A DNA stretch of 64,000 bases from Antedon mediterranea. Taxonomy: Eukaryota > Echinodermata > Crinoidea > Comatulida > Antedonidae. The position numbers and the translations under genes were made by a program. The notes below the pieces were generated by a model. It was not told the origin of the DNA, did no database searches, and was given only the letters and a program-made list of their open reading frames with translations. The stretch covers positions 769,001 to 833,000 of the forward strand of contig NC_092670.1 in NCBI RefSeq assembly GCF_964355755.1. The letters are read 5' to 3'. Every line of letters starts with the position of its first letter. Position 1 is the stretch's first letter. This document shows positions 284 through 62,800 of this stretch, one piece after another.

Positions 284-726
284 CTGTATCCAATGTCTGC
301 TTTAATAGAAGGCAGTAAATAAAACTATTGCATTCTAATATTTTTGTGTACATACTTCCTTGTATAGTGTAGTGTACAGTAATTATACAACTTATTAAAT
401 AGCCTGTACTGCACAGCCATTGGAAATTGCAACATAATGTATTGTACTACAGCAACTGTGATTACAATTATTGTTACTATTTTAAATGTTTAATACTGTA
501 TTCATTACAGTAGCAATTGAGATGATTATTATACCAAAACTATACTAAGTATTTCACTTCAGTAAATAAATATCTAACAGTTTCTTTTTCTTTGTCGTGT
601 TCACATAACATAGTTTAGGAGAATTTAAAGTGTGAATATGGCAAGTGGTTTCAGGCAAAACTACTTCTTCTACTAACTACAGGAAGAGCAAGAATTTTGG
701 ATATGTTGTCAGTAAAAAAAACCTAC
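284..726. other. AT-rich probable BFAR intron, nothing recognised
   Basis: No coding signal is visible. The stretch follows the splice donor of the BFAR coding exon (minus strand, GT at 726-725) and is best read as intron. The partner exon is not in the window. Confidence 0.5.
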
Positions 727-1130
727 CTTAAAATAAAGTTGACATTAGGAAATCCAGCCCATTCTTGCCGACAGAGAGGACAAGTACAAGTTCCTGATGT
801 CTTCCACCATTGAGCAATACAAAGACGACAAAAACTATGCCCACAGTTTATCGTTGTCGGGCTAATCATTAAATCACTGCAACATGCACATGTAAAATCT
901 CGCACCGTAACGGAACGTTCATATATCTGACCAACGCTGTCGATAGCGTGGTCAGATCCTGTAGTTCTGTGTACATGAGCACTTTGTTCTGATAATAAAG
1001 TTTCACTGCTTGTATTGACAAACAATTTATGTTGATGACTAGGGTCAGCAGGCAAAAAGTCATCAGGGGGTTCAGGTTCATAATCACCCCTTCTCCTTTT
1101 ATGAAGTTTTTGATTATATGATCCAGCCAT
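727..1130 (-). CDS. BFAR: BFAR-like RING finger protein, first coding exon (partial)
   Basis: BFAR is an ER-membrane RING E3 ubiquitin ligase and apoptosis regulator (RING, SAM and membrane segments). This exon gives 134 residues plus two bases. A C3HC4 RING is visible: C81, C84, C96, H98, C101, C104, C117, C120. The context SPTTINCGHSFC and the tail EWAGFPNVNFILR closely match vertebrate BFAR, as I recall that family. The start chosen is the ATG at 1130-1128 (MAGSYNQ). Codons in the same frame upstream read through an untranslated leader into a good acceptor (CAG at 1186-1184), so the longer frame starting near 1208 is not used. The exon ends at 727 before the donor GTAGGT, at the same place as in vertebrates. 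The N-terminal 75 residues are unlike vertebrate BFAR. SAM and membrane exons would lie to the left of position 1. The gene is divergent from PARN. Confidence 0.88.
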
Positions 1131-1559
1131 ATTTAAAATAATTAAAAAAGAAAAATCATTGGAAATATTTACAAGTTTGGAATCTGAAAAACAAGAGAGA
1201 AAACACAAGAAATGATGGATAATTCATTGCAACAACAATATTTAATTGTTCACTTTAAAAACGTACAATAATTTTAAGTAATTAACTCAAAATAAAAGTA
1301 ATACTAATTAATAAAATAGTATACAACAACAACACACAGTCCACCAGCCAGTCTGTCCGTGTTTGACAGTTGATACTTACTAGAATATAGGCCTAGCTCT
1401 AGGTAGGAGGCCTAATTTTATAGGTATATTATATTTGAACGATCCATTTCATTATTTTAAAAGTTTATTGATCAGTTTCGACAGTTTTAATGTAATTAGG
1501 TTATTAAGTCTTTAGTCTAGGCCTAACTATTTTAGGCTAGCTATAAACTGTACACTCAC

Positions 1560-28219: not shown

Positions 28220-29712
28220 ATGGCAGAACAAGATCAGGTCTTCGCCGCCGAAGCGATCCTACAAAAACGATTTAGAAAGGCTAGTAAACGATTTCTTACG
28301 GCTTACATATCTAAAGGAATTAATACTACGAAAATGTAAGATTCTAACTGTAATATTTTTTCGTTTTGTCTGTTACAGGGAAATGCTGAATTTTTAGTGA
28401 AATGGAAAGGCTGGTCGAATAAGTGAGTATAGTTTTATTCATAAGTTGAATTCTGCTTCCGTAATTATGCCCATGTTTATTCGATTATTTAGGCTTATAT
28501 TTCAATTTGTCTGCTTAAGATATTAATATAATCTGATAAAGAAATATATTCTCTTTTAGACACAATACTTGGGAACCCGAAAACAACATTTTAGATGACC
28601 GTTTATTGCGATTTTTCGAGCAACGGTAAGTAAATAATTGATTAGTATGATACAATATGGCGATCCGGTATAACACTTGAATTCGTATGTTGATTTTAAA
28701 GTTCATGCGGTATATACAGGCAACTCTTTATATTTTCGTTTTGTTAATTAGACAGAGAAATCGGGGATTTAGTACAGAACCTAGAAGGGGTAGAAGACCA
28801 AAACGTAGAGGTCGACCAGTAAGTAATAAAATTGTGTTTTCACCATGTATTTTGGTTATTTTTATGACGTATCGAGCGACAGTACAGAATTGTATGCGCC
28901 ATTTAACTGGTTTATCTGCTATAAATACAAAACCGTAAACAATACTCAAGTTTTCGTTTTATTTTTACAAAATATAAATATATGGAATTATATTTTTATC
29001 GTAGTCTTTAGATTCCAAACGAGAATTTTTAAATACAGAACCTAAACATGCAGTACAAGCAAAAGCTCGTCTTCGTCCTAGAAAGGATGACTTAATGTTG
29101 AACGAAAATTCAGACGACGACAGCAACAATGATGCATTTGATTTGAATAGTTTAGATGAGAATTCCAACACAGATATAAATTTCGTTGAAGACCCACCAA
29201 AAGTAGACGATTTAGATGAAGAAGAAAAACGAAAAATCGCAGAGGATGAGGAGCAGCTAAAACTTTTACAAAGTGCTAGCACATGCGCTATACGGTCCCG
29301 AAGTACGTCCTTTGACCATCACGAAGTCGAATTTAAAGTGTTTAAAAGGCGAGGACGACCACCTAAAAATGCCTCCCGTCGCGGTGGTGCTAGAGGGGGT
29401 GGTAGGCACAAACGATGCCTGCCTAGCGTTATGTTACCACAACACAAAGAAATTGAATTGAAAAAGATATTACCAGATCCCATTCCTGTTTCCCCACCAC
29501 CATCTCCCAAAGAAATCCCTGTTGTTGAGTTTAAACCAAAACCAACGAATGTGTTCATACCACCACTTTGGCGGCCGACACCAAACGTCAAAGTGGATAA
29601 CGTTGTGGTCACGGAGGTAACGGAACATGAGTTGACCATTACAGTTCGTGAATGTCCAACAAGCGAAGGGTTTTTTGATAAAAGTAATGATGAACGTAAT
29701 TCTATTCGATGA
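28220..29712 (+). CDS. Polycomb chromobox protein CBX-A (CBX2-like), complete, 5 exons
   Basis: A Polycomb-group CBX protein, expected to be the methyl-H3K27 reader of canonical PRC1. Exons: 28220-28279, 28379-28422, 28560-28625, 28752-28818, 29005-29712; 945 nt, 314 aa. The chromodomain (about 7-57) has all three cage aromatics: F8, W29 (LVKW) and W32 (KGW), then NTWEPENNIL. Basic AT-hook-like motifs follow: RRGRRPKRRGRP (68-79) and KRRGRPPK (193-200). Between them is an acidic, Ser/Asn-rich region (about 105-165); a Pro-rich piece (PVSPPPSPKE) comes before the C-terminus. The Pc box (about 279-304; VTEVTEHELTITV then EGFF) is the RING1-binding signature. The AT hooks favour the CBX2 type, but orthology is not settled. 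Introns are tiny (99-186 bp). Intron 1 needs a GC donor (GCTAGT) to join RFRK to GNAEFL. In exon 5 the acceptor must be the TAG at 29002-29004, since the next AG leads to a stop. Confidence 0.92.
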
Positions 29713-44130: not shown

Positions 44131-44804
44131 TTTTTGCATAGGAATATGCGTCGTCATTATCCAAACATTTATTTTCGATACAGTACGGTACATTTTTTGA
44201 GTTATCATCGATAAAAACAACATTCTCAAAGTTGTAAATATCATACATTTGTGACGTGATATGAATGAGGAATTATAAGTCACAAACGAGTCCCTTGGCA
44301 TGAGTTGCGTTCATGAACCTTTAGAAACGCGTTAGCGATATCAGATACAATCTCATGCGTGTCGTTGTTTTGATTGTATTGTATCATATACATTTCATTA
44401 TTTTGGAACAACGTTTTCAGATCTTTGAGATAAAATATAAACTTACATATCATCACATTCACAGCGACGTATAAATGAAATTATGTCTCTGTTTATCAAT
44501 GAAATAACAAACCAATAGCAAAATATATTTATTGACTCGGCCTATTTTATTGAGCGCATAAAGCTAATTAAAAGCCCCCAAAGCTGTATTCATTTTTAAA
44601 ATAAAAGCGCCGGAAATTAAGGAAAACCTTATTTAATTTAGAAAAATTGATTCATTTTGGCTTTACAGAATCTTTAGTAAATACTAAACTAAATCCTATT
44701 TATTTTAAGAATTTTTTTAGGATTATGACTGCATCCTAAAATTCTTTTTTTACTATCATTTTATATGAAGTATTATGCTGCTGTTGCTATCTTGTAGATA
44801 CATC
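44131..44804. other. Intergenic, nothing recognised
   Basis: AT-rich sequence between a minisatellite and the large satellite array. Short open frames here have no family resemblance. Confidence 0.5.
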
Positions 44805-47233
44805 TTACTTACTAGTAGGCCTATATACATATTACTTACTAGTAGGCCTATATACATATTACTTACTAGTAGGCCTATATACATATTACTTACTAGTAGG
44901 CCTATATACATATTACTTACTAGTAGTAGGCCTATATACATATTACTTACTAGTAGTAGGCCTATATACATATTACTTACTAGTAGGCCTATATACATAT
45001 TACTTACTAGTAGGCCTATATACATATTACTTACTAGTAGGCCTATATACATATTACTTACTAGTAGGCCTATATACATATTACTTACTAGTAGGCCTAT
45101 ATACATATTACTTACTAGTAGGCCTATATACATATTACTTACTAGTAGGCCTATATACATATTACTTACTAGTAGTAGGCCTATATACATATTACTTACT
45201 AGTAGGCCTATATACATATTACTTACTAGTAGTAGGCCTATATACATATTACTTACTAGTAGTAGGCCTATATACATATTACTTACTAGTAGGCCTATAT
45301 ACATATTACTTACTAGTAGGCCTATATACATATTACTTACTAGTAGGCCTATATACATATTACTTACTAGTAGGCCTATATACATATTACTTACTAGTAG
45401 TAGGCCTATATACATATTACTTACTAGTAGGCCTATATACATATTACTTACTAGTAGTAGGCCTATATACATATTACTTACTAGTAGGCCTATATACATA
45501 TTACTTACTAGTAGGCCTATATACATATTACTTACTAGTAGTAGGCCTATATACATATTACTTACTAGTAGGCCTATATACATATTACTTACTAGTAGGC
45601 CTATATACATATTACTTACTAGTAGGCCTATATACATATTACTTACTAGTAGGCCTATATACATATTACTTACTAGTAGGCCTATATACATATTACTTAC
45701 TAGTAGGCCTATATACATATTACTTACTAGTAGTAGGCCTATATACATATTACTTACTAGTAGTAGGCCTATATACATATTACTTACTAGTAGGCCTATA
45801 TACATATTACTTACTAGTAGGCCTATATACATATTACTTACTAGTAGGCCTATATACATATTACTTACTAGTAGGCCTATATACATATTACTTACTAGTA
45901 GTAGGCCTATATACATATTACTTACTAGTAGTAGGCCTATATACATATTACTTACTAGTAGTAGGCCTATATACATATTACTTACTAGTAGGCCTATATA
46001 CATATTACTTACTAGTAGGCCTATATACATATTACTTACTAGTAGGCCTATATACATATTACTTAATAGTAGGCCTATATACATATTACTTACTAGTAGG
46101 CCTATATACATATTACTTACTAGTAGGCCTATATACATATTACTTACTAGTAGTAGGCCTATATACATATTACTTACTAGTAGTAGGCCTATATACATAT
46201 TACTTACTAGTAGTAGGCCTATATACATATTACTTACTAGTAGGCCTATATACATATTACTTACTAGTAGGCCTATATACATATTACTTACTAGTAGGCC
46301 TATATACATATTACTTACTAGTAGGCCTATATACATATTACTTACTAGTAGGCCTATATACATATTACTTACTAGTAGGCCTATATACATATTACTTACT
46401 AGTAGGCCTATATACATATTACTTACTAGTAGGCCTATATACATATTACTTACTAGTAGGCCTTTATACATATTACTTACTAGTAGGCCTATATACATAT
46501 TACTTACTAGTAGGCCTATATACATATTACTTACTAGTAGGCCTATATACATATTACTTACTAGTAGGCCTATATACATATTACTTACTAGTAGGCCTAT
46601 ATACATATTACTTACTAGTAGTAGGCCTATATACATATTACTTACTAGTAGTAGGCCTATATACATATTACTTACTAGTAGGCCTATATACATATTACTT
46701 ACTAGTAGTAGGCCTATATACATATTACTTACTAGTAGTAGGCCTATATACATATTACTTACTAGTAGTAGGCCTATATACATATTACTTACTAGTAGGC
46801 CTATATACATATTACTTACTAGTAGGCCTATATACATATTACTTACTAGTAGGCCTATATACATATTACTTACTAGTAGGCCTATATACATATTACTTAC
46901 TAGTAGGCCTATATACATATTACTTACTAGTAGTAGGCCTATATACATATTACTTACTAGTAGTAGGCCTATATACATATTACTTACTAGTAGTAGGCCT
47001 ATATACATATTACTTACTAGTAGTAGGCCTATATACATATTACTTACTAGTAGGCCTATATACATATTACTTACTAGTAGGCCTATATACATATTACTTA
47101 CTAGTAGGCCTATATACATATTACTTACTAGTAGGCCTATATACATATTACTTACTAGTAGGCCTATATACATATTACTTACTAGTAGGCCTATATACAT
47201 ATTACTTACTAGTAGGCCTATATACATATTACT
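44805..47233. repeat. Satellite array of 27/30-bp units, about 87 copies
   Basis: The basic unit is 27 bp (ttactagtaggcctatatac plus atattac). About 25 of some 87 units carry an extra tag making them 30 bp (ctagtagtagg). I see only two base changes in 2.4 kb: cttaatag near 46063 and cctttatac near 46463. Each unit holds ACTAGT and nearly every one TAGGCCTA. Both lengths are multiples of three, so open frames of over 820 codons run on both strands as a by-product. They encode 9/10-residue repeats (MYIGLLVSN, or RPIYILLTS on the other strand). Long and short units occur in runs, which suggests higher-order duplication. Confidence 0.97.
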
Positions 47234-47475
47234 TTTCTAAGAATGTTGGTGCATTTTAGTGTCGCAAAGTAGTAGTCAAGTCGCACAAAATATTGAGAAC
47301 ACATTTTATAAGAAATAACTAAAGAATTAGATAAAAATAAGAACTAACTAACGAAACACCCACACATTGTTTTGAAAGTCTAAGCCTTTCTATAGGAAAA
47401 TGTGTCCGATCTGAGAATATTTCTTTACGTATTCCGTCTTATGATTAAGCAATAGTTTTACAAACTATTTATGTA

Positions 47476-50832: not shown

Positions 50833-53800
50833 ATGGAATTACCAAGTTTGGGTGAGCAGGTATTTGTTGCAGATTATATACAGAAACGACGAATACGCGG
50901 AGTAAGTAGTTGTTTTGTTTACATATTTATTTATTGGAGAGATATTATGAGTTTTCTGTTGCTAGCAGGCGATTGAGTTCTGATTGGTTTGCCCAGCAGA
51001 AACGTGCTGTGACCGAGAGTTCATTGTAACATGCTGGTTTGTTTTGATTTTGCAACGACATAACCAAATTACCTTGTCGCTGTTAAGCAAGTTAATGTAA
51101 TACTAATTAAAAACATATCACACACGCTCTTGTTAATGATATATTTCCCTGAGTGGACTAGGGTAGTTGGAGATAGTTTCAAAAGATAAGGTGCATTAAA
51201 GATTTCATCAAAAATCATAAGGAAGAATTATCGACAAAATGAATTAACATGGAGTAGGATTATTTAGTCTTAGTAAAATTGTTGAAGTAAGCCTACACTT
51301 TAAATAAAAAATTATACCAGGGCAGGGCCAGGGAGTTGAATTACTCCCTGAAAACAAATAGAGTATCTAGACCTTACTAATATTATTCGGTAATCCTACC
51401 TCACACACTCTAAATATTATTAATAAATATCTTGGAAATATGACTTAAGTACAATAAACATCAACAGATTATTCATACATACGTAACGGTAAATTAAAAT
51501 ATATTCAGATCTGAACAAAGGTTTAATCGTACCTACTACTGGCGTACAATTCTAAATAATATATTTATTTGTGGGATAACGAAATACTGTACTTTTCAAG
51601 GCCTTATTACCTTGTTTACACAAAGGACATGAGGGCCAAATAAAAATTGAATTATAACATTTATGTTCTTAATGTTGACACTTATGAATAACATTAACTA
51701 TATACATGGACCTTTTTATACATTATTATTTTATACTTTTTTAGGTCAATGTAATTCTTGAAAACCCTTTCGTCAGCGTAAACATTGACATTTCTGTTTT
51801 ATGATGTCACATGAATTGCGTTTATAGTAGAAAGACGATCATTCTAGAATCTTCTCTAGTTGTCGTCACGAATTGTGTTAAAATAATGCATTTCTACTCT
51901 AAAGCTTTTTCTACACTATCAAACTAGTGTGACAAAAAAAGTGTGATGTGCCCAAATATGGTAGTGATATGACATCATCATTTTCATATATGGGCACATC
52001 ATCACATTTTTTTGTCATATAAAATTTGATTTGTAGACAGCTTGAGTTAAATCTGTTACAATACAATTATTAATTATTCAATGTTTACCAAAAAGTTTAT
52101 CCTTAGAACCTTTTGTTAGAACTCATTAAAGATTCATTCTATAATAATTGTTCTTTGTTGTAGGCTAATTATTTTTCTTTGTAACATATCAGAATGTAAC
52201 TGATGTAATTGATTTGATCAATACATTTAGCTTACACATTTGTCAAGAAGTCAATTAAGAGAATACAAATTGATTTTATGAGATCGTATGGGAAACAAAA
52301 TAACATCTTCTTACAATTTTGTTTTCAATCACGAAGAAAATAATTTACAGTATGTATTTGTAACGTAAGTCGTTTAACCTTGACAGTGGATTCAGCAGAT
52401 CCCGGTGAATATTAAGTCCGCAAATTACATTAAATTGGGTGGTAAATTATTTCCAACAGTATTAATCGAACTTCCTGGATATAGTATAGATTTAATTGTT
52501 TAGGTTGCAACAACCATGAGCGTCCCTAGAAAGAAGGTCATGGCCTCTGACCCGGATGCGCCTGTCTCCTGAGGGGGTTGGGATTACGTTGTGCATCACC
52601 CATAGAATTTCTTCCGTTTCGGTCGCTGAAAATGATGGAACTGGTGCGTGAATTAGCTCACATCATGACCACAACTTAATATTAAGCAAGAATATAATGA
52701 ATAACTCTGTAGGCATGGAAATTTGCTGAAAATATGTTCGTAATATTTGCAAACCATCACTTATATTAACAACAAATATTTGTCGTAACATATTGTGATC
52801 ATGCACACGTACGTCACCCAATTACTATCCATCTACACCACTTTTGCGAACAGGGTCTTCCACAGAACACTGAGATGATCTCCTGACCCATAGGGACAGT
52901 GAGGGAGTGGTTTTGAATTATACTCCCAACATTTTGTAAAAAGGTGGGGGGGGGGGGGCATAACATTGTCAACAACCGTCTTTTAGGTTTTGAGGGGGTG
53001 TTGCTTTTTGGGGTGTCCCCTGTTTCACCTAAAACTCTATCGGCGGCCTTTTTCCTACCTTAAAAAAAAATAAATTGGTTTTATGATGGGAGACCTGTTG
53101 ATCTATTTGTAGGCCTACAAATTGACATGACCTTTGACATTACAGTATGTTTATTGCGTGTTTTTCTCGGTCGATATTTTGTAAGGCTTTTATTTACGAT
53201 CCATTAATACCCATTATATAATACTTATCTTCGATTGTTTCTTTCCAGAGAAAAATTGAATACTTGGTCAAGTGGAAAGGTTGTTCAATAAAGTAAGTTA
53301 ATCATTCATTACAGTAGGAATGACATATCAATCGTAGTAACGATGTATTAGCAATCTCCTTGGAGATTGTAGCATAATAGCATAATAGTGTGTGTTTTAT
53401 TTGCCACATTCTGTTTATATTTCTATATATATATATATCTTTATAACATGAAGGGTTAGTGTTGCCCGAAAGCTCTGCTTTTTTTTCTGGCTGTTTTACT
53501 TTATCGTTTTTATTTTGCCTTTTACTTATTTTTTCGTATCTCCATTGAGATCCAGCTACTGATACCCACAGCATTGCCATTTTTTAAAGTAATGGATTTA
53601 TTTATTTCTTATATTATTCTCATATAATGAATATTAACGATATGATGAAACCAGATGATGGGTGGTGATACCATGGAGGTATCCATGGTGATACCATGGA
53701 GGTATCCATGGTGATACCATGGAGGTATCCATGGTGATACTAAGACCAATTGTGAATTTTCCGCAATCATTATAGAGTTAGGTCTATAGTAAAATTGGGC

Positions 53801-56800
53801 GACATCACGGTTATTAGCAAAGACTATGCCATATATTAAATAATATCGAATTATTATTGAATCCTGACACGATAAATTACAATGATTGTTTGATACAATT
53901 CGATATGGATAATTGGACAGGAGAAGACCTACACCAAATTAAAATCAGCATGTCGTTGATGGCGACAAACAGACAAATAATTATATTTACGACATAAACA
54001 TGTTGTTGATTTCAAAAAGAAACATAATTTATCAAAACACATCAAAACAAAAACCAGTTTTGGTGACACAAATTGATATGATCAATTCCGTTTACTATTA
54101 TTGATTGTTTTAGAGCAAGTTGCGAGAACTATACACACACAGGAGTGTTTGATTATTTTAATTTCACCTTTTTAAATAGCAATTTGTGTGAAAATGCCTT
54201 TAGATAGTAAACAACGTACAGAGTAACATATCTTGCGGGATTATGTTAGTGAATAATTCTTGGCAAACCTCCAAATATCATGCATTATTTTTTGCTGCGT
54301 GCTTTCTTTAATTCGTTATTCTAATCTGAAAGGCATGTACGTCATTTAACAAGGAACATAATGGGTTCAAATCAATAATTCTATGTTTAAAATAAATGGT
54401 AAACATACTTCAAATAATAATGTTGATGTGTTAACATCACGTCTGTATATGAAATGATGGAAAATTACAATATTTTTATTTATTGGTGGGCCTTAACACA
54501 GCCGCACGGGATGGTAAACAAAATGGTTCAAATTAAAACGCAAAAAAGGTGCATAAAACAAACATGAATCACATTGAAACATAAAATCAATTTCATTAAA
54601 TTAATTAATTAATGAAGTGAAGTTATTTATTTGACATTTACAACAATAACGTTTTAAAGAAGAATCCCTCCTTTTCCATGAAATGAACGAAAATATATTA
54701 CCCTCAAGGGAAAACTATTGGGTCCAGAAGGTGTCCCCTTCTACTGTATTCAATGTTGGTAACCATCCTTTACTCACTTTATAAAATAACATGATCTGAA
54801 TTTAAATTGGTTAAATTTATATATTTTGATTTTTTGGTTATGAAATAATAGTGAAACCAAAGTGTACGGGCGCCATTTTGTAAGATGCTGTAATTGCCTA
54901 CTTAAAACATAATACTCGTCATAATATTATACATTGCAGTATATTGACACATTATACATTGCAGTATATTGACACATTGTACATTGCAGTATATTGACAC
55001 ATTGTACATTGGAGTATATTGACACATTGTGCATTGCAGTATATTGACACATTATGTCAATCTTTTGTTGCATATATCAACCTCGAAATCCATTAATACA
55101 ATAAACAAAATCTCTATTTTTTATATTAAAATATTCTATATATATTCTATATTATATTTAGTTAATTATAGCCTATAGTGGATAATTGTTTAATAATTGT
55201 CAATTAATCTTTTATTAAGTTATTGTAAAGAATAATTAAACCAGTTTTCTTATGGGTAATACATCTTACTCAAAAAGGTCAATTATTAATATTTTCAATA
55301 TAATTGTTCACTATTGTCTTCAATATTGATCATCAACAAGTGCGAGAGATGGACGCGCGCGCGCAGCCACACACACAATCGTGTTTTTTTAATGTCGAGT
55401 TTATTTCGGATACTATAATGGTAAATTAGACTATACAAACAATATCTTGACTCGTATGAACGTAACGGTTATGACAATTAGTTTCATCCAAGCTGTACAC
55501 AGGCAATTTACCACCGTTTTATTTACTCATTAAAAATGTCAGAAAATTTAAACAGACATTGAAATATAAGTAGTTCTTCCAAAATGTTTCACAAATCAAT
55601 CTAATAAATGTTATTGAATAATAATAAGATCACGTGGCTTTCACAAAAGCACTATAACGCGAATCAATTGACTCGGGTCAGCAGCGAAGTCAATGACCAG
55701 ATTTGCTTTGATCTAATTGAGTCATTTTGTGACAAACGTGTAATATGATTAATTAGCCTAACCAGTTTATTTATTAACTATATTGCATCGTATATCCTAT
55801 ATAGTAATATCATACGACGGTACCGTAAGTGTAATGAGTGACATTAATTGGCTAATAGCTTGTTTTCCGCGTATTGGATGCGCGTTTTTATTTCCAAAGG
55901 TATATGGAAATATGAGCGCGCATGCGTATAATCACGCCACATTGGATAAATGAAATATGACATTCATTTATTACAATATTAGTGTTTCTTACTATGCTAA
56001 AACTTTCAACTTTGACCCTGAATTATAATGTTGTAATTCAATTTCTTTATGTTTATCTTTAGGGCGAGCACATGGGAACCGGAATCAAACATTCTTGATC
56101 CAACTCTCATCCGAGATTTAGAAGAAAGGTAAGCTAATCTTTTATGAAATGTTAAATTTCAACATTTTCTAAAGCGAAATGATAGTTTAATAATAATCAG
56201 TAATGGTCGCCTTATCGCTGCTTTAACATAAAACAGAGAAAAAGTTCAAAAAAATAACTCGGTTCTGCACTTTCAAGCTTCACGAAAGCTCACCGGAACA
56301 GAATTCACAGCAGCTCCAGTGAAAATGGTATCCTACTATAATTCCTATCCTATAAAAAAAACGGATTAATTTACATTAACTGAGAACCAACTTTTGTTAA
56401 AGACTAATCAACTGACGAACTCTTTTATAGAATGTGGCAGATAACTTTATGTTTGCGGTTGTCTGGGTTTTACCTAGGTCAGCATTTGTAACTTGTGCAA
56501 TTAGAAATGAGATCAAAAACCACGATGGTAGTATTAAGACATGACGAAACAAAAGCGACTGAGCTGTTCTTGAAGCACGTTTTCATCTCCCAAAGATGTT
56601 AAAAGTGAAGAAATCTGTTGGCACTACGTGAAACTGCAGCAGACGACGGAAGTGTTCTATGCAATCTGAGCGCGTTTTTGGCAGTTATTGTTCACTTAAG
56701 AGCAACAATTTGGCAGATAACCAACTTGCTTTTCTTGTGTTTACTTTATATCATTTTATTATATCATTGTGTATATCGTAATTTCTACGTAATGTATAGG

Positions 56801-59800: not shown

Positions 59801-62800
59801 ATAGGTGACAATGTGTACACATACGACTTGACGCGCGCGTTCAAAATCGGATGAAAATGCGCTTGATATTAATTAACAACGGATAGGCGCGCCAAAAACA
59901 TTTTAAATAGATTTCAGAAGATGATATAAGTTCTATTTATTCAATGTAGTAGGCTTAAGACAACTAAATGTTGATGATCGATGTTTTCAATTTGAGAAAG
60001 TGTTTAATGTGTTATGTATTTCCTTTACAGATTACAGCTTAGTTGGTCTCAGCACAGAAGAGGACGAAAACCAAAGTTAACACATAATAAGGTATTTATA
60101 TATAATATTCATTTCCTGATATTCGTTGTCAATGAATATATAAAAGCTTGCTAATTTCAATACACAGGGAGTTTCTATACATTTTAGAGAAATAACCAAC
60201 CGCTTTTTACTTCAAAATTCTCTAAACCGTTATTACTTGAATTATGTGGTGACAAATCGTAGTGACAACCACAGAGAAACAATATTATTTTACGCGTCTG
60301 TACAAAACTATACTTATCATTATATGGACGCGCACGTGTTTTGTCATTATTTTTTCTGTATCAAATGCCTGTCCTCAATACTTTATTTTTGTTGCTGAAC
60401 ACACGAAGTTGCACTGGTCGACTGCCAATATCAAACCACAATTTTATAACAATAATAATATTTTATGTGCATTACTATCCTTTTACTTAACACAACTGTG
60501 GTTATATAACTAGTTTATTGAAAGAAATTAACCTTTACAATCTAACACGAACAAAGAGCAAGACGATTGTGTAAAAGATGTAATAATCAAAAAAATTCGA
60601 GGAATGAATATCTCTGTAGACATTGTACTAATATTCCATATTCCCTGATTCCCTTTAAGATGTTCCGAGTTAACTTATTAAAGAGCAATAATAAGGAAGG
60701 TTCAGGATATACTATAATTATCAGGAAAGATATCGTGTGCAACCCACACATTTGAGTACGAGTTTCATGATTGGCTATTAATAATATTTTGAATTCGTTT
60801 CAATTGTGGCTTAAAACTGCATCCTCACCCACCCATGTTCAAAGCCGTACTATTTTTGGAAATCTAAAAAATAAACCATAAATCAGCATACAATGGACGG
60901 TATAATAATAGTGGGGTTTAGGCGGGTCCGTAGGATGGTGAGTCAGATGTGCAGGGGAACAAACTGAGGTGAAAAGGCGACAGGAAAATGTGGCTTTGGC
61001 AAATGAACAAGATTAGGCCCACACACAAGTCTTCTGTGAGTACTTTTACTATAGTGCTAGAAGAGATGGAATTGGCAAATAATCATGAAAATAGAAATCT
61101 TTCAAGATTGGCATCGTATAACAATTTTGACAAAGTTTGCGCGTGTCTAGCAGACGATATTGATGTAATTCAGTTATAACCGCCAGAACAATTGAATTAA
61201 TCTAAGCTTACTATAGATTCATTTTAATTAAAATGCATTTAATTTAATTTGTTAACGGGATGGCGATTTATTATTTTAGTTTTAATTTATATCACATTTA
61301 TTATGATTTTGTCTGAAAATTATCGACATCATCCCCATTTGATTAACTAACTAACGAATAAAATGTTAGTCTAAAATGGTCACGAGATTCAGACAGCAGA
61401 TTTTAAACATTTATTTATTGTGACTATAACATTTCTATTCAACTCATGCACAATAAAATTACAATTACAAATATTAGTTATATTATGTATATACAGTACA
61501 GTAATCAAATACGCCTACATATTGATAAATAAAAAGTGGAGATGCTTAGTTGCCAGATTACTCATAATTATTCGACCCTATTTTCATTGTCACTTGTAGG
61601 GCGGTGATCGCCAACACCCGACTTAGTACACTACCATCAATACATAAATAATAGCTTAGGTCCCACAAATATCAATGCAAACTTATTAGTCACGAATATA
61701 TGTTGTTGCTTTTTATTTATTACCCGTTAAATGCAGATTATCGGCATGGAAAATGAAATCACATCATTTAGAACTTTATGAGTTATGTAGATTACAATGC
61801 CTTTTTAACACGGTAACAATTTTCTGGTAATTAAATGCGTGAATATAAATCAAACTCTTTAAGCTTGATTCCGAAGAGACGCAACGTAATGACGTAGACG
61901 CAACGTAATGACGTAGACGCAACGTAATGACGTAGACGCAACGTAATAACGTAGACGCAACGTAAGGACGTAGACGCAATGCAATTGACCAATGACAAGC
62001 GACAGTTCGAATATTATTATTAATTTGACGTATACGCAACGTAATGACGTAGACGCAATGCAAGCAATTTGACCAATGACAAGTGACAGCTGTTGGTGGC
62101 TTGTGATTGGCCAAATCACTTACACGCTGCGCTTATGATGTCCTTGCGTTGCATCTACTAGTTGGAAACAAGCATAGCGGTTATAATGATTAATAGAAAA
62201 AAAAACAATCCTGTTACCCTCTGCATGCAACTATGAATAAATTGCAGTTGATGACAACAATATTACAAGATTCCAATGTAACTAATTCTAATAAACCAAA
62301 ATAACGTTGTAAAGAAATGAATAAACTTAACCATGATATGGATTTGGGCATTCAGGCATTATTGTTGTACCATTATAATAGATTTTGATTCCAACAATAA
62401 CAAGGTCCGTTTGCGAGTATAATTTTCTAGGAAATAGATATGGTGATTACAGGTTAAATGAAATGAATACAAAATAAAACTTATATACCTGTAACAGATC
62501 ACTGTGATGGGAATAATAGCATAATGTACACCCTCAATATAACACTCCATATTAATTACCGATATATCGCAAGTTATCTAGAATTGGATTAAATTCTTAG
62601 AAGTAATCCTTAAATCATGAATACATGAATAAAATACAAACGTTGTTACGCTATGTTATTTGTGGGGAAGGTTTCACAACAATATTAAAGACTATTTTAT
62701 TTGTATTTTGTACCCACTTTTTCCACACATTTAGCTTTTAAACAAGTAGTTACATATTTATGTCTCGTCATGTTGTATTTTGTGAGGGTCCCTAATGATC

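What the first reader, a model, noticed from the sequence alone, without database searches (positions are those of the whole stretch)
50833..56128. CBX-B chromodomain has Cys in place of a cage Trp
The sequence reads VKWKGC (53249-53292), so residue 35 is Cys. In the Polycomb CBX chromodomain the methyl-lysine cage is F11, W32 and W35 (CBX7 numbering), and HP1 proteins have Tyr or Phe at the third place. The rest of the domain, the Pc box and the splice frame are intact, so this is not simple decay. CBX-B may bind H3K27me3 weakly, read another mark, or reach chromatin mainly by its basic motif. The neighbour CBX-A keeps all three aromatics, which would let the pair divide work. That the codon is TGT is seen; the functional reading is inference.
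Basis: partly seen in the sequence, partly recalled or inferred. Interest (0 to 1): 0.78.

Follow-up and report, generated by a model that had tools for sequence, protein, structure and literature searches.

The report
Polycomb protein missing a methyl-cage tryptophan
One of several Polycomb CBX genes in this animal genome encodes a protein whose histone-mark pocket is altered while its DNA-contacting and complex-joining parts are kept, so it may silence genes without reading the mark that Polycomb proteins normally read.

Summary
In detail: codon 35 of CBX-B is TGT (53282-53284), in an intact 276-aa, five-exon frame ending in a Pc box. More than one residue is involved: of eight residues that papers name as touching methylated H3, four differ from human CBX2/4/6/7/8 and fly Pc (A12V, W35C, Y/H39A, R52T), while the four DNA-contacting arginines known from CBX8 are kept. 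CBX-B is not half of a pair: two more genes of the cluster (C, D) lie beyond the window and two (E, F) at a second locus on the same contig; the other five of six keep W35. E and F also lack R52 and E shares A12V, so part of the change is not special to B. CBX7 W35A is reported binding-deficient; a CBX8 cage mutant still joins PRC1 but loses its target sites. Best reading: a Polycomb CBX subunit that has largely lost H3K27me3 reading and reaches chromatin through DNA and PRC1. No orthologue, read or binding data were available, so fixation of the Cys and its effect are inferred.

The parts
50833..50901 (+). CBX-B exon 1 (residues 1-23; V10, F11, V12; DNA-face R19, R20, R22)
   Evidence: gene model; GTAAGT donor
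50866..50868 (+). codon 12, Val where human CBX2/4/6/7/8, fly Pc and paralogues A, C, D have Ala; E also has Val
50887..50898 (+). R19-R20-I21-R22, counterpart of DNA-contacting arginines of CBX8
53249..53292 (+). CBX-B exon 2 ([14 protein letters not shown] and two bases of K38)
   Evidence: AG acceptor, GTAAGT donor
53282..53284 (+). codon 35, TGT = Cys in place of the third cage Trp
56063..56128 (+). CBX-B exon 3 (last base of K38, [21 protein letters not shown], two bases of R60)
56064..56066 (+). codon 39, Ala where the others compared have Tyr or His (E has Ser)
56103..56105 (+). codon 52, Thr where human CBX2/4/6/7/8, Pc, A, C, D have Arg (E Gly, F Cys)
60031..60091 (+). CBX-B exon 4; completes R60
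60056..60076 (+). RRGRKPK, AT-hook-like basic motif, aligned with KRGPKPK of CBX7
   Evidence: alignment; motif name after PMC5056789
63388..63978 (+). CBX-B exon 5 with stop codon
63856..63945 (+). Pc box (CBX7_C, PF17218), expected RING1 contact
   Evidence: 29.4 bits; 26.4 bits, cut-off 22.2
28220..29712 (+). CBX-A, five exons, F/W/W cage and Pc box; intron 1 reads GC-AG

Best explanation
CBX-B is a Polycomb-class CBX subunit in which the face of the chromodomain that reads methylated H3 has been altered at four of eight listed places (third cage Trp, the nearby Tyr/His, and two further H3 contacts) while the fold residues, the DNA-contacting arginine face, the AT-hook-like motif and the Pc box are kept. 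It most likely joins PRC1 through the Pc box and holds chromatin through DNA and partner subunits, with little or no dependence on H3K27me3; paralogues A and C, which have cage and Pc box, would do the mark-dependent part. Shown: the residues, the frame, the Pc box, the paralogues. Inferred: loss of binding (by analogy with CBX7 W35A and CBX8 W32A), DNA-led targeting, PRC1 membership.
For: Codon and frame. Pc box over its cut-off. In the seven contact columns named by PMC2784810 (section 6 read) the nine reference chromodomains (A, C, D, human CBX2/4/6/7/8, fly Pc) have 0 of their 50 private residues, B has 3 of 9 (p = 0.0026; 2 of 8 without column 35, p = 0.017). At columns invariant in those nine, B keeps 11 of 12 non-contact and 2 of 5 contact ones. 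DNA face RRRR, identical to CBX8. CBX7 W35A is reported as binding-deficient and a doubled W35A domain does not localise to H3K27me3 (PMC11045877, passages). Six of six phage-selected CBX7 binders of H3K27me3 keep the cage positions but for one F11Y (PMC9666628, section 6). CBX8 W32A does not bind H3K27me3, enters PRC1, and keeps more chromatin binding than a domain deletion (PMC6411926, section 28). H3K27me3 is said to matter less for Cbx2, Cbx4 and Cbx6 targeting than for Cbx7 and Cbx8, and chromodomain plus AT-hook-like motif of Cbx7 to bind DNA (PMC5056789, abstract passage).
Against: No binding, expression or orthologue data. CBX8 W32A was not enriched at the target genes tested and repression failed at some genes, so DNA binding alone may not give useful targeting. 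In one search the single wild-type CBX7 domain did not visibly localise either; the contrast was seen with doubled domains. E and F also lack R52, and E has A12V and a non-aromatic residue at 39 with the Trp kept, so those changes alone need not mean loss of reading. Of A-D, B scores lowest to solved Pc-class chromodomains (best 71 bits against 82-83), which would also fit relaxed constraint. The p-values treat residues as independent, within B alone they are 0.04-0.10, and the case was picked for column 35.
Confidence: 0.55

Rival explanations
1. CBX-B still reads H3K27me3 or H3K9me3, only more weakly, with F11 and W32 and help from DNA, as other weakly binding CBX domains do.
For: Wild-type human CBX6 and CBX8 domains bound no peptide detectably in one study although their cages are complete (passage of PMC9666628), and CBX8 still depends partly on H3K27me3 in cells. 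F11, W32, V10, L49 and D50 are kept.
Against: W35A alone removed localisation of a doubled CBX7 domain; three more H3-contact residues are changed as well.
Confidence: 0.2
2. Relaxed constraint: CBX-B is redundant with A and C and its chromodomain is drifting; the Cys has no new meaning.
For: Of A-D it has the longest end branch in one tree (0.61 changes per column) and the second longest in another (0.46), and the lowest scores to solved Pc-class domains.
Against: 276 codons open over five exons, canonical splice sites, Pc box kept; non-contact invariant columns kept in 11 of 12 and the DNA face in 4 of 4, while 4 of 7 contact columns changed.
Confidence: 0.12
3. The altered pocket reads another ligand: a lower methylation state, another modified lysine, or RNA.
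For: Nothing direct; fold residues and part of the pocket remain.
Against: No positive evidence; Cys gives no cation-pi surface (general knowledge).
Confidence: 0.07
4. TGT is an assembly error or a rare allele and most copies of the gene have Trp.
For: TGG to TGT is a single base; reads could not be examined.
Against: One match for this stretch in the genome, on a contig of 41 Mb; the changes at 12, 39 and 52 in the same protein do not depend on this base.
Confidence: 0.06

Closest known systems
Human CBX7/CBX6/CBX8 (Pc-class CBX proteins of canonical PRC1)
   Same: N-terminal chromodomain over three exons, AT-hook-like motif, C-terminal Pc box; best match among solved structures CBX7; 34 of 53 positions as CBX6, 33 as CBX8, 31 as CBX7
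   Different: W35 is Cys, Y39 is Ala, A12 is Val, R52 is Thr
Laboratory cage mutants CBX7 W35A and CBX8 W32A
   Same: One cage Trp missing, rest of the protein present
   Different: In a genome rather than made; Cys; with three further H3-face changes
CBX-E of the same genome (C1:18.88 Mb)
   Same: V12, D14, a non-aromatic residue at 39, no Arg at 52
   Different: Keeps W35, has Tyr at 11, no Pc box found; its grouping with B is not robust
HP1 chromodomains
   Same: Chromodomain fold
   Different: Tyr/Phe at the third place and a chromo shadow domain (recalled); B has Cys and no such Pfam match

Membership tests
Polycomb-class CBX gene family (by descent) | N-terminal chromodomain | tested here: met
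   PF00385 45.7 bits, cut-off 25.1
Polycomb-class CBX gene family (by descent) | C-terminal Pc box | tested here: met
   PF17218 26.4 bits, cut-off 22.2
Polycomb-class CBX gene family (by descent) | chromodomain split over three exons | tested here: met
   described for vertebrate CBX in PMC2784810
Polycomb-class CBX gene family (by descent) | incorporation in PRC1 through RING1 | not testable with these tools
   Pc box present; no interaction data
Canonical H3K27me3-reading chromodomains | three-aromatic cage (F/Y11, W32, W35) | tested here: not met
   C35; so it is not filed as a canonical reader
Canonical H3K27me3-reading chromodomains | other H3 contacts V10, A12, Y/H39, D50, R52 | tested here: not met
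   2 of 5 kept (V10, D50)
Canonical H3K27me3-reading chromodomains | measured binding to H3K27me3 | not testable with these tools
   needs peptide or nucleosome binding
CBX8-type DNA-binding chromodomain | basic patch R19, R20, R22, R60 | tested here: met
   RRRR; patch described in PMC6411926 (passages)
CBX8-type DNA-binding chromodomain | binding to DNA | not testable with these tools
   no assay
HP1 | chromo shadow domain | tested here: not met
   no Pfam match beside Chromo and CBX7_C up to E = 1

The most novel reading that the evidence does not exclude
Reader and effector have been parted among duplicated Polycomb genes of one animal: CBX-B is an effector without a reader (Pc box and DNA face kept, methyl-H3 face dismantled), D (and perhaps E, F) are readers without a Pc box, and A and C keep both. 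CBX-B would be a natural, mark-independent subunit of canonical PRC1.
Probability: 0.25. Interest if true: 0.72.

Novelty: new variant of a known kind. Interest (0 to 1): 0.5.

Why it matters
How far canonical PRC1 needs H3K27me3, and how far DNA, is studied with made mutants such as those of PMC6411926 and PMC5056789. A natural subunit with the methyl-H3 face changed and the DNA face and Pc box kept would be a ready test.

Tried and rejected
Alternative exon 2 with Trp in the CBX-B introns: none in a pattern scan of the window. Second genomic copy of exon 2 or of exon 5: none found. HP1 membership: rejected. Pseudogene: unlikely. VKWRGW matches on C5, C8 and C11: rejected as CBX genes, since a pattern scan of the same strand in the 18 kb fetched at each showed no chromodomain exons; the pattern gave 7 matches and its backward control 1. 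The first census pattern gave 11 matches and its backward control 7, so chance matches were expected; the four of these read as L031 to L034 were not followed as CBX genes (L031 reads YLVKWKGF and then a stop).

A first contact test with nine comparison sequences gave B 4 of 12 private residues in the seven contact columns against 0 of 56 for the rest (p = 0.0006; 0.0034 without column 35). After E and F were found this fell to 3 of 9 against 0 of 50 (p = 0.0026; 0.017 without column 35), because A12V is shared with E. B, E and F together give 6 of 22 against 0 of 50 (p = 0.0005), but that grouping was made after seeing the data. Within B alone, contact against other columns, p was 0.04 to 0.10. 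A B-E sister pair had support 49/84 and disappears when columns 12, 35, 39 and 52 are left out; no fork in these small trees is well supported, so shared descent of the changes is not claimed. Pc box in D: no match in the genome search, in Pfam, or with a small profile of the A, B and C boxes, where shuffled tails scored higher. Species: a cytochrome oxidase search found nothing, the rRNA search returned an error and was not repeated; contig number and sizes seen (18 contigs; those seen 22-41 Mb) might fit a crinoid, but that is recalled and untested. Orthologues in other animals: no collection here holds them. A fold prediction was not asked for, since the spliced protein is not read letter for letter from contiguous DNA. 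A bacterial promoter scan was not informative.

Full report
Observation. CBX-B reads [60 protein letters not shown] and on to a C-terminal Pc box, 276 aa over five exons, all four introns GT-AG, no stop. Codon 35 is TGT at 53282-53284. In CBX7 numbering F11 and W32 are kept. Pfam gives Chromo 45.7 bits and CBX7_C 26.4 bits, both over cut-off. By its chromodomain it is nearest human CBX7 among solved structures (71 bits).

Is the gene intact? 276 open codons have a chance of about 2e-10 at the base composition of its introns. Exon 2 with flanks and exon 5 each have one match in the genome, themselves. No alternative KWKG/KWRG exon was seen in the introns. Reads and transcripts could not be examined.

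How unusual is the Cys? In the same genome, 20 stretches covering 21 of the 33 Chromo matches were read: the third cage place is aromatic in 18 of 20 and Leu in two (L016, L019, CHD-like by recall); none has Cys. Among six Polycomb-type genes found (below) five have Trp. PMC2784810 (section 6) states that this Trp is conserved in all Pc homologues, meaning those that its authors compared.

More than one gene. The Pc-box search found a third gene outside the window, and scanning found a fourth. CBX-C lies at C1:841863-837551 on the minus strand (392 aa, Y/W/W cage; Pc box 25.7 bits and 22.1 against a cut-off of 22.2). CBX-D lies at C1:856852-847661 on the minus strand (340 aa, F/W/W, no Pc box found, a PLDLS motif). 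A pattern census led to a second locus on C1 at 18.88-18.90 Mb with CBX-E (exons 1-3 read) and CBX-F (exons 2-3 read), both with W35; neither locus has a match in the Pc-box search, but their last exons were not modelled. The census patterns ask for particular codons, so further members may have been missed: the first missed F and the second missed C.

More than one residue. PMC2784810 names fly Pc residues that matter for binding H3K27me3 or H3; in CBX7 numbering they are V10, F/Y11, A12, W35, Y39, D50, R52 (offset of one, checked on the Pc chain). CBX-B changes four of these seven: A12V, W35C, Y/H39A, R52T; with W32 added, four of eight. Human CBX2/4/6/7/8, fly Pc, A, C and D have 0 of 50 private residues there, B has 3 of 9, E 2 of 6, F 1 of 7. 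So the H3 face differs in B, E and F, and B alone has lost a cage ring. The test is small and treats residues as independent; see Tried and rejected for the first version and its weakening.

What is kept. The CBX8 chromodomain binds DNA through R19, R20, R22 and R60 on the face opposite the histone pocket (PMC6411926, passages). CBX-B has Arg at all four, as do CBX8 and D. The AT-hook-like stretch RRGRKPK follows the domain; in Cbx7, chromodomain and this motif together bind DNA (PMC5056789, abstract passage).

Mechanism. CBX7 W35A is used as a binding-deficient control and, as a doubled domain, does not localise to H3K27me3; the single wild-type domain did not visibly localise either (PMC11045877, passages). 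Selection of CBX7 variants on H3K27me3 kept the cage in six of six clones but for one F11Y (PMC9666628, section 6). CBX8 W32A does not bind H3K27me3, enters PRC1 and keeps part of its chromatin binding, but is not enriched at the target genes tested (PMC6411926, section 28). By analogy CBX-B should not read H3K27me3 well, should enter PRC1, and should hold chromatin mainly through DNA. The last result also warns that such a protein may be a poor silencer alone; it may work beside A or C, or compete with them for RING1. These are inferences.

Comparison with print. Full-text searches for Polycomb or CBX terms with sea urchin, echinoderm or crinoid returned 0, 1 (unrelated by title, listing only) and 0 papers, and one with amphioxus returned one paper, unrelated by title (listing only). 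Searches on chromodomain cages gave 4 and 3 papers, of which only PMC9666628 was opened. The library holds open-licence papers only, so nothing is claimed about print as a whole. PMC2784810 says that invertebrates have one Pc gene (passages).

Verdict. It is a new variant of a known kind, of moderate interest until orthologues and binding are tested.

Noticed in passing
28280-28281: CBX-A intron 1 appears to start with GC instead of GT (AAG|GCTAGT); by inspection the GT a few bases on would put the frame into a stop.
   Followed up: partly
44798-47234: Tandem array of about 87 copies of a 27-base unit between CBX-A and CBX-B, open in frames on both strands.
   Followed up: no
L007/L008, C1:856852-847661: CBX-D has an intact cage, a PLDLS motif (CtBP-binding type, recalled) and no Pc box found: the mirror image of CBX-B.
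   Followed up: partly
L035-L037, C1:18.880-18.898 Mb: Second CBX locus with two genes (E, F) that keep W35 but lack R52; E also has Val at 12.
   Followed up: partly
723-1223 (minus strand): RING-finger coding stretch (zf-C3HC4_4 37.8 bits).
   Followed up: no
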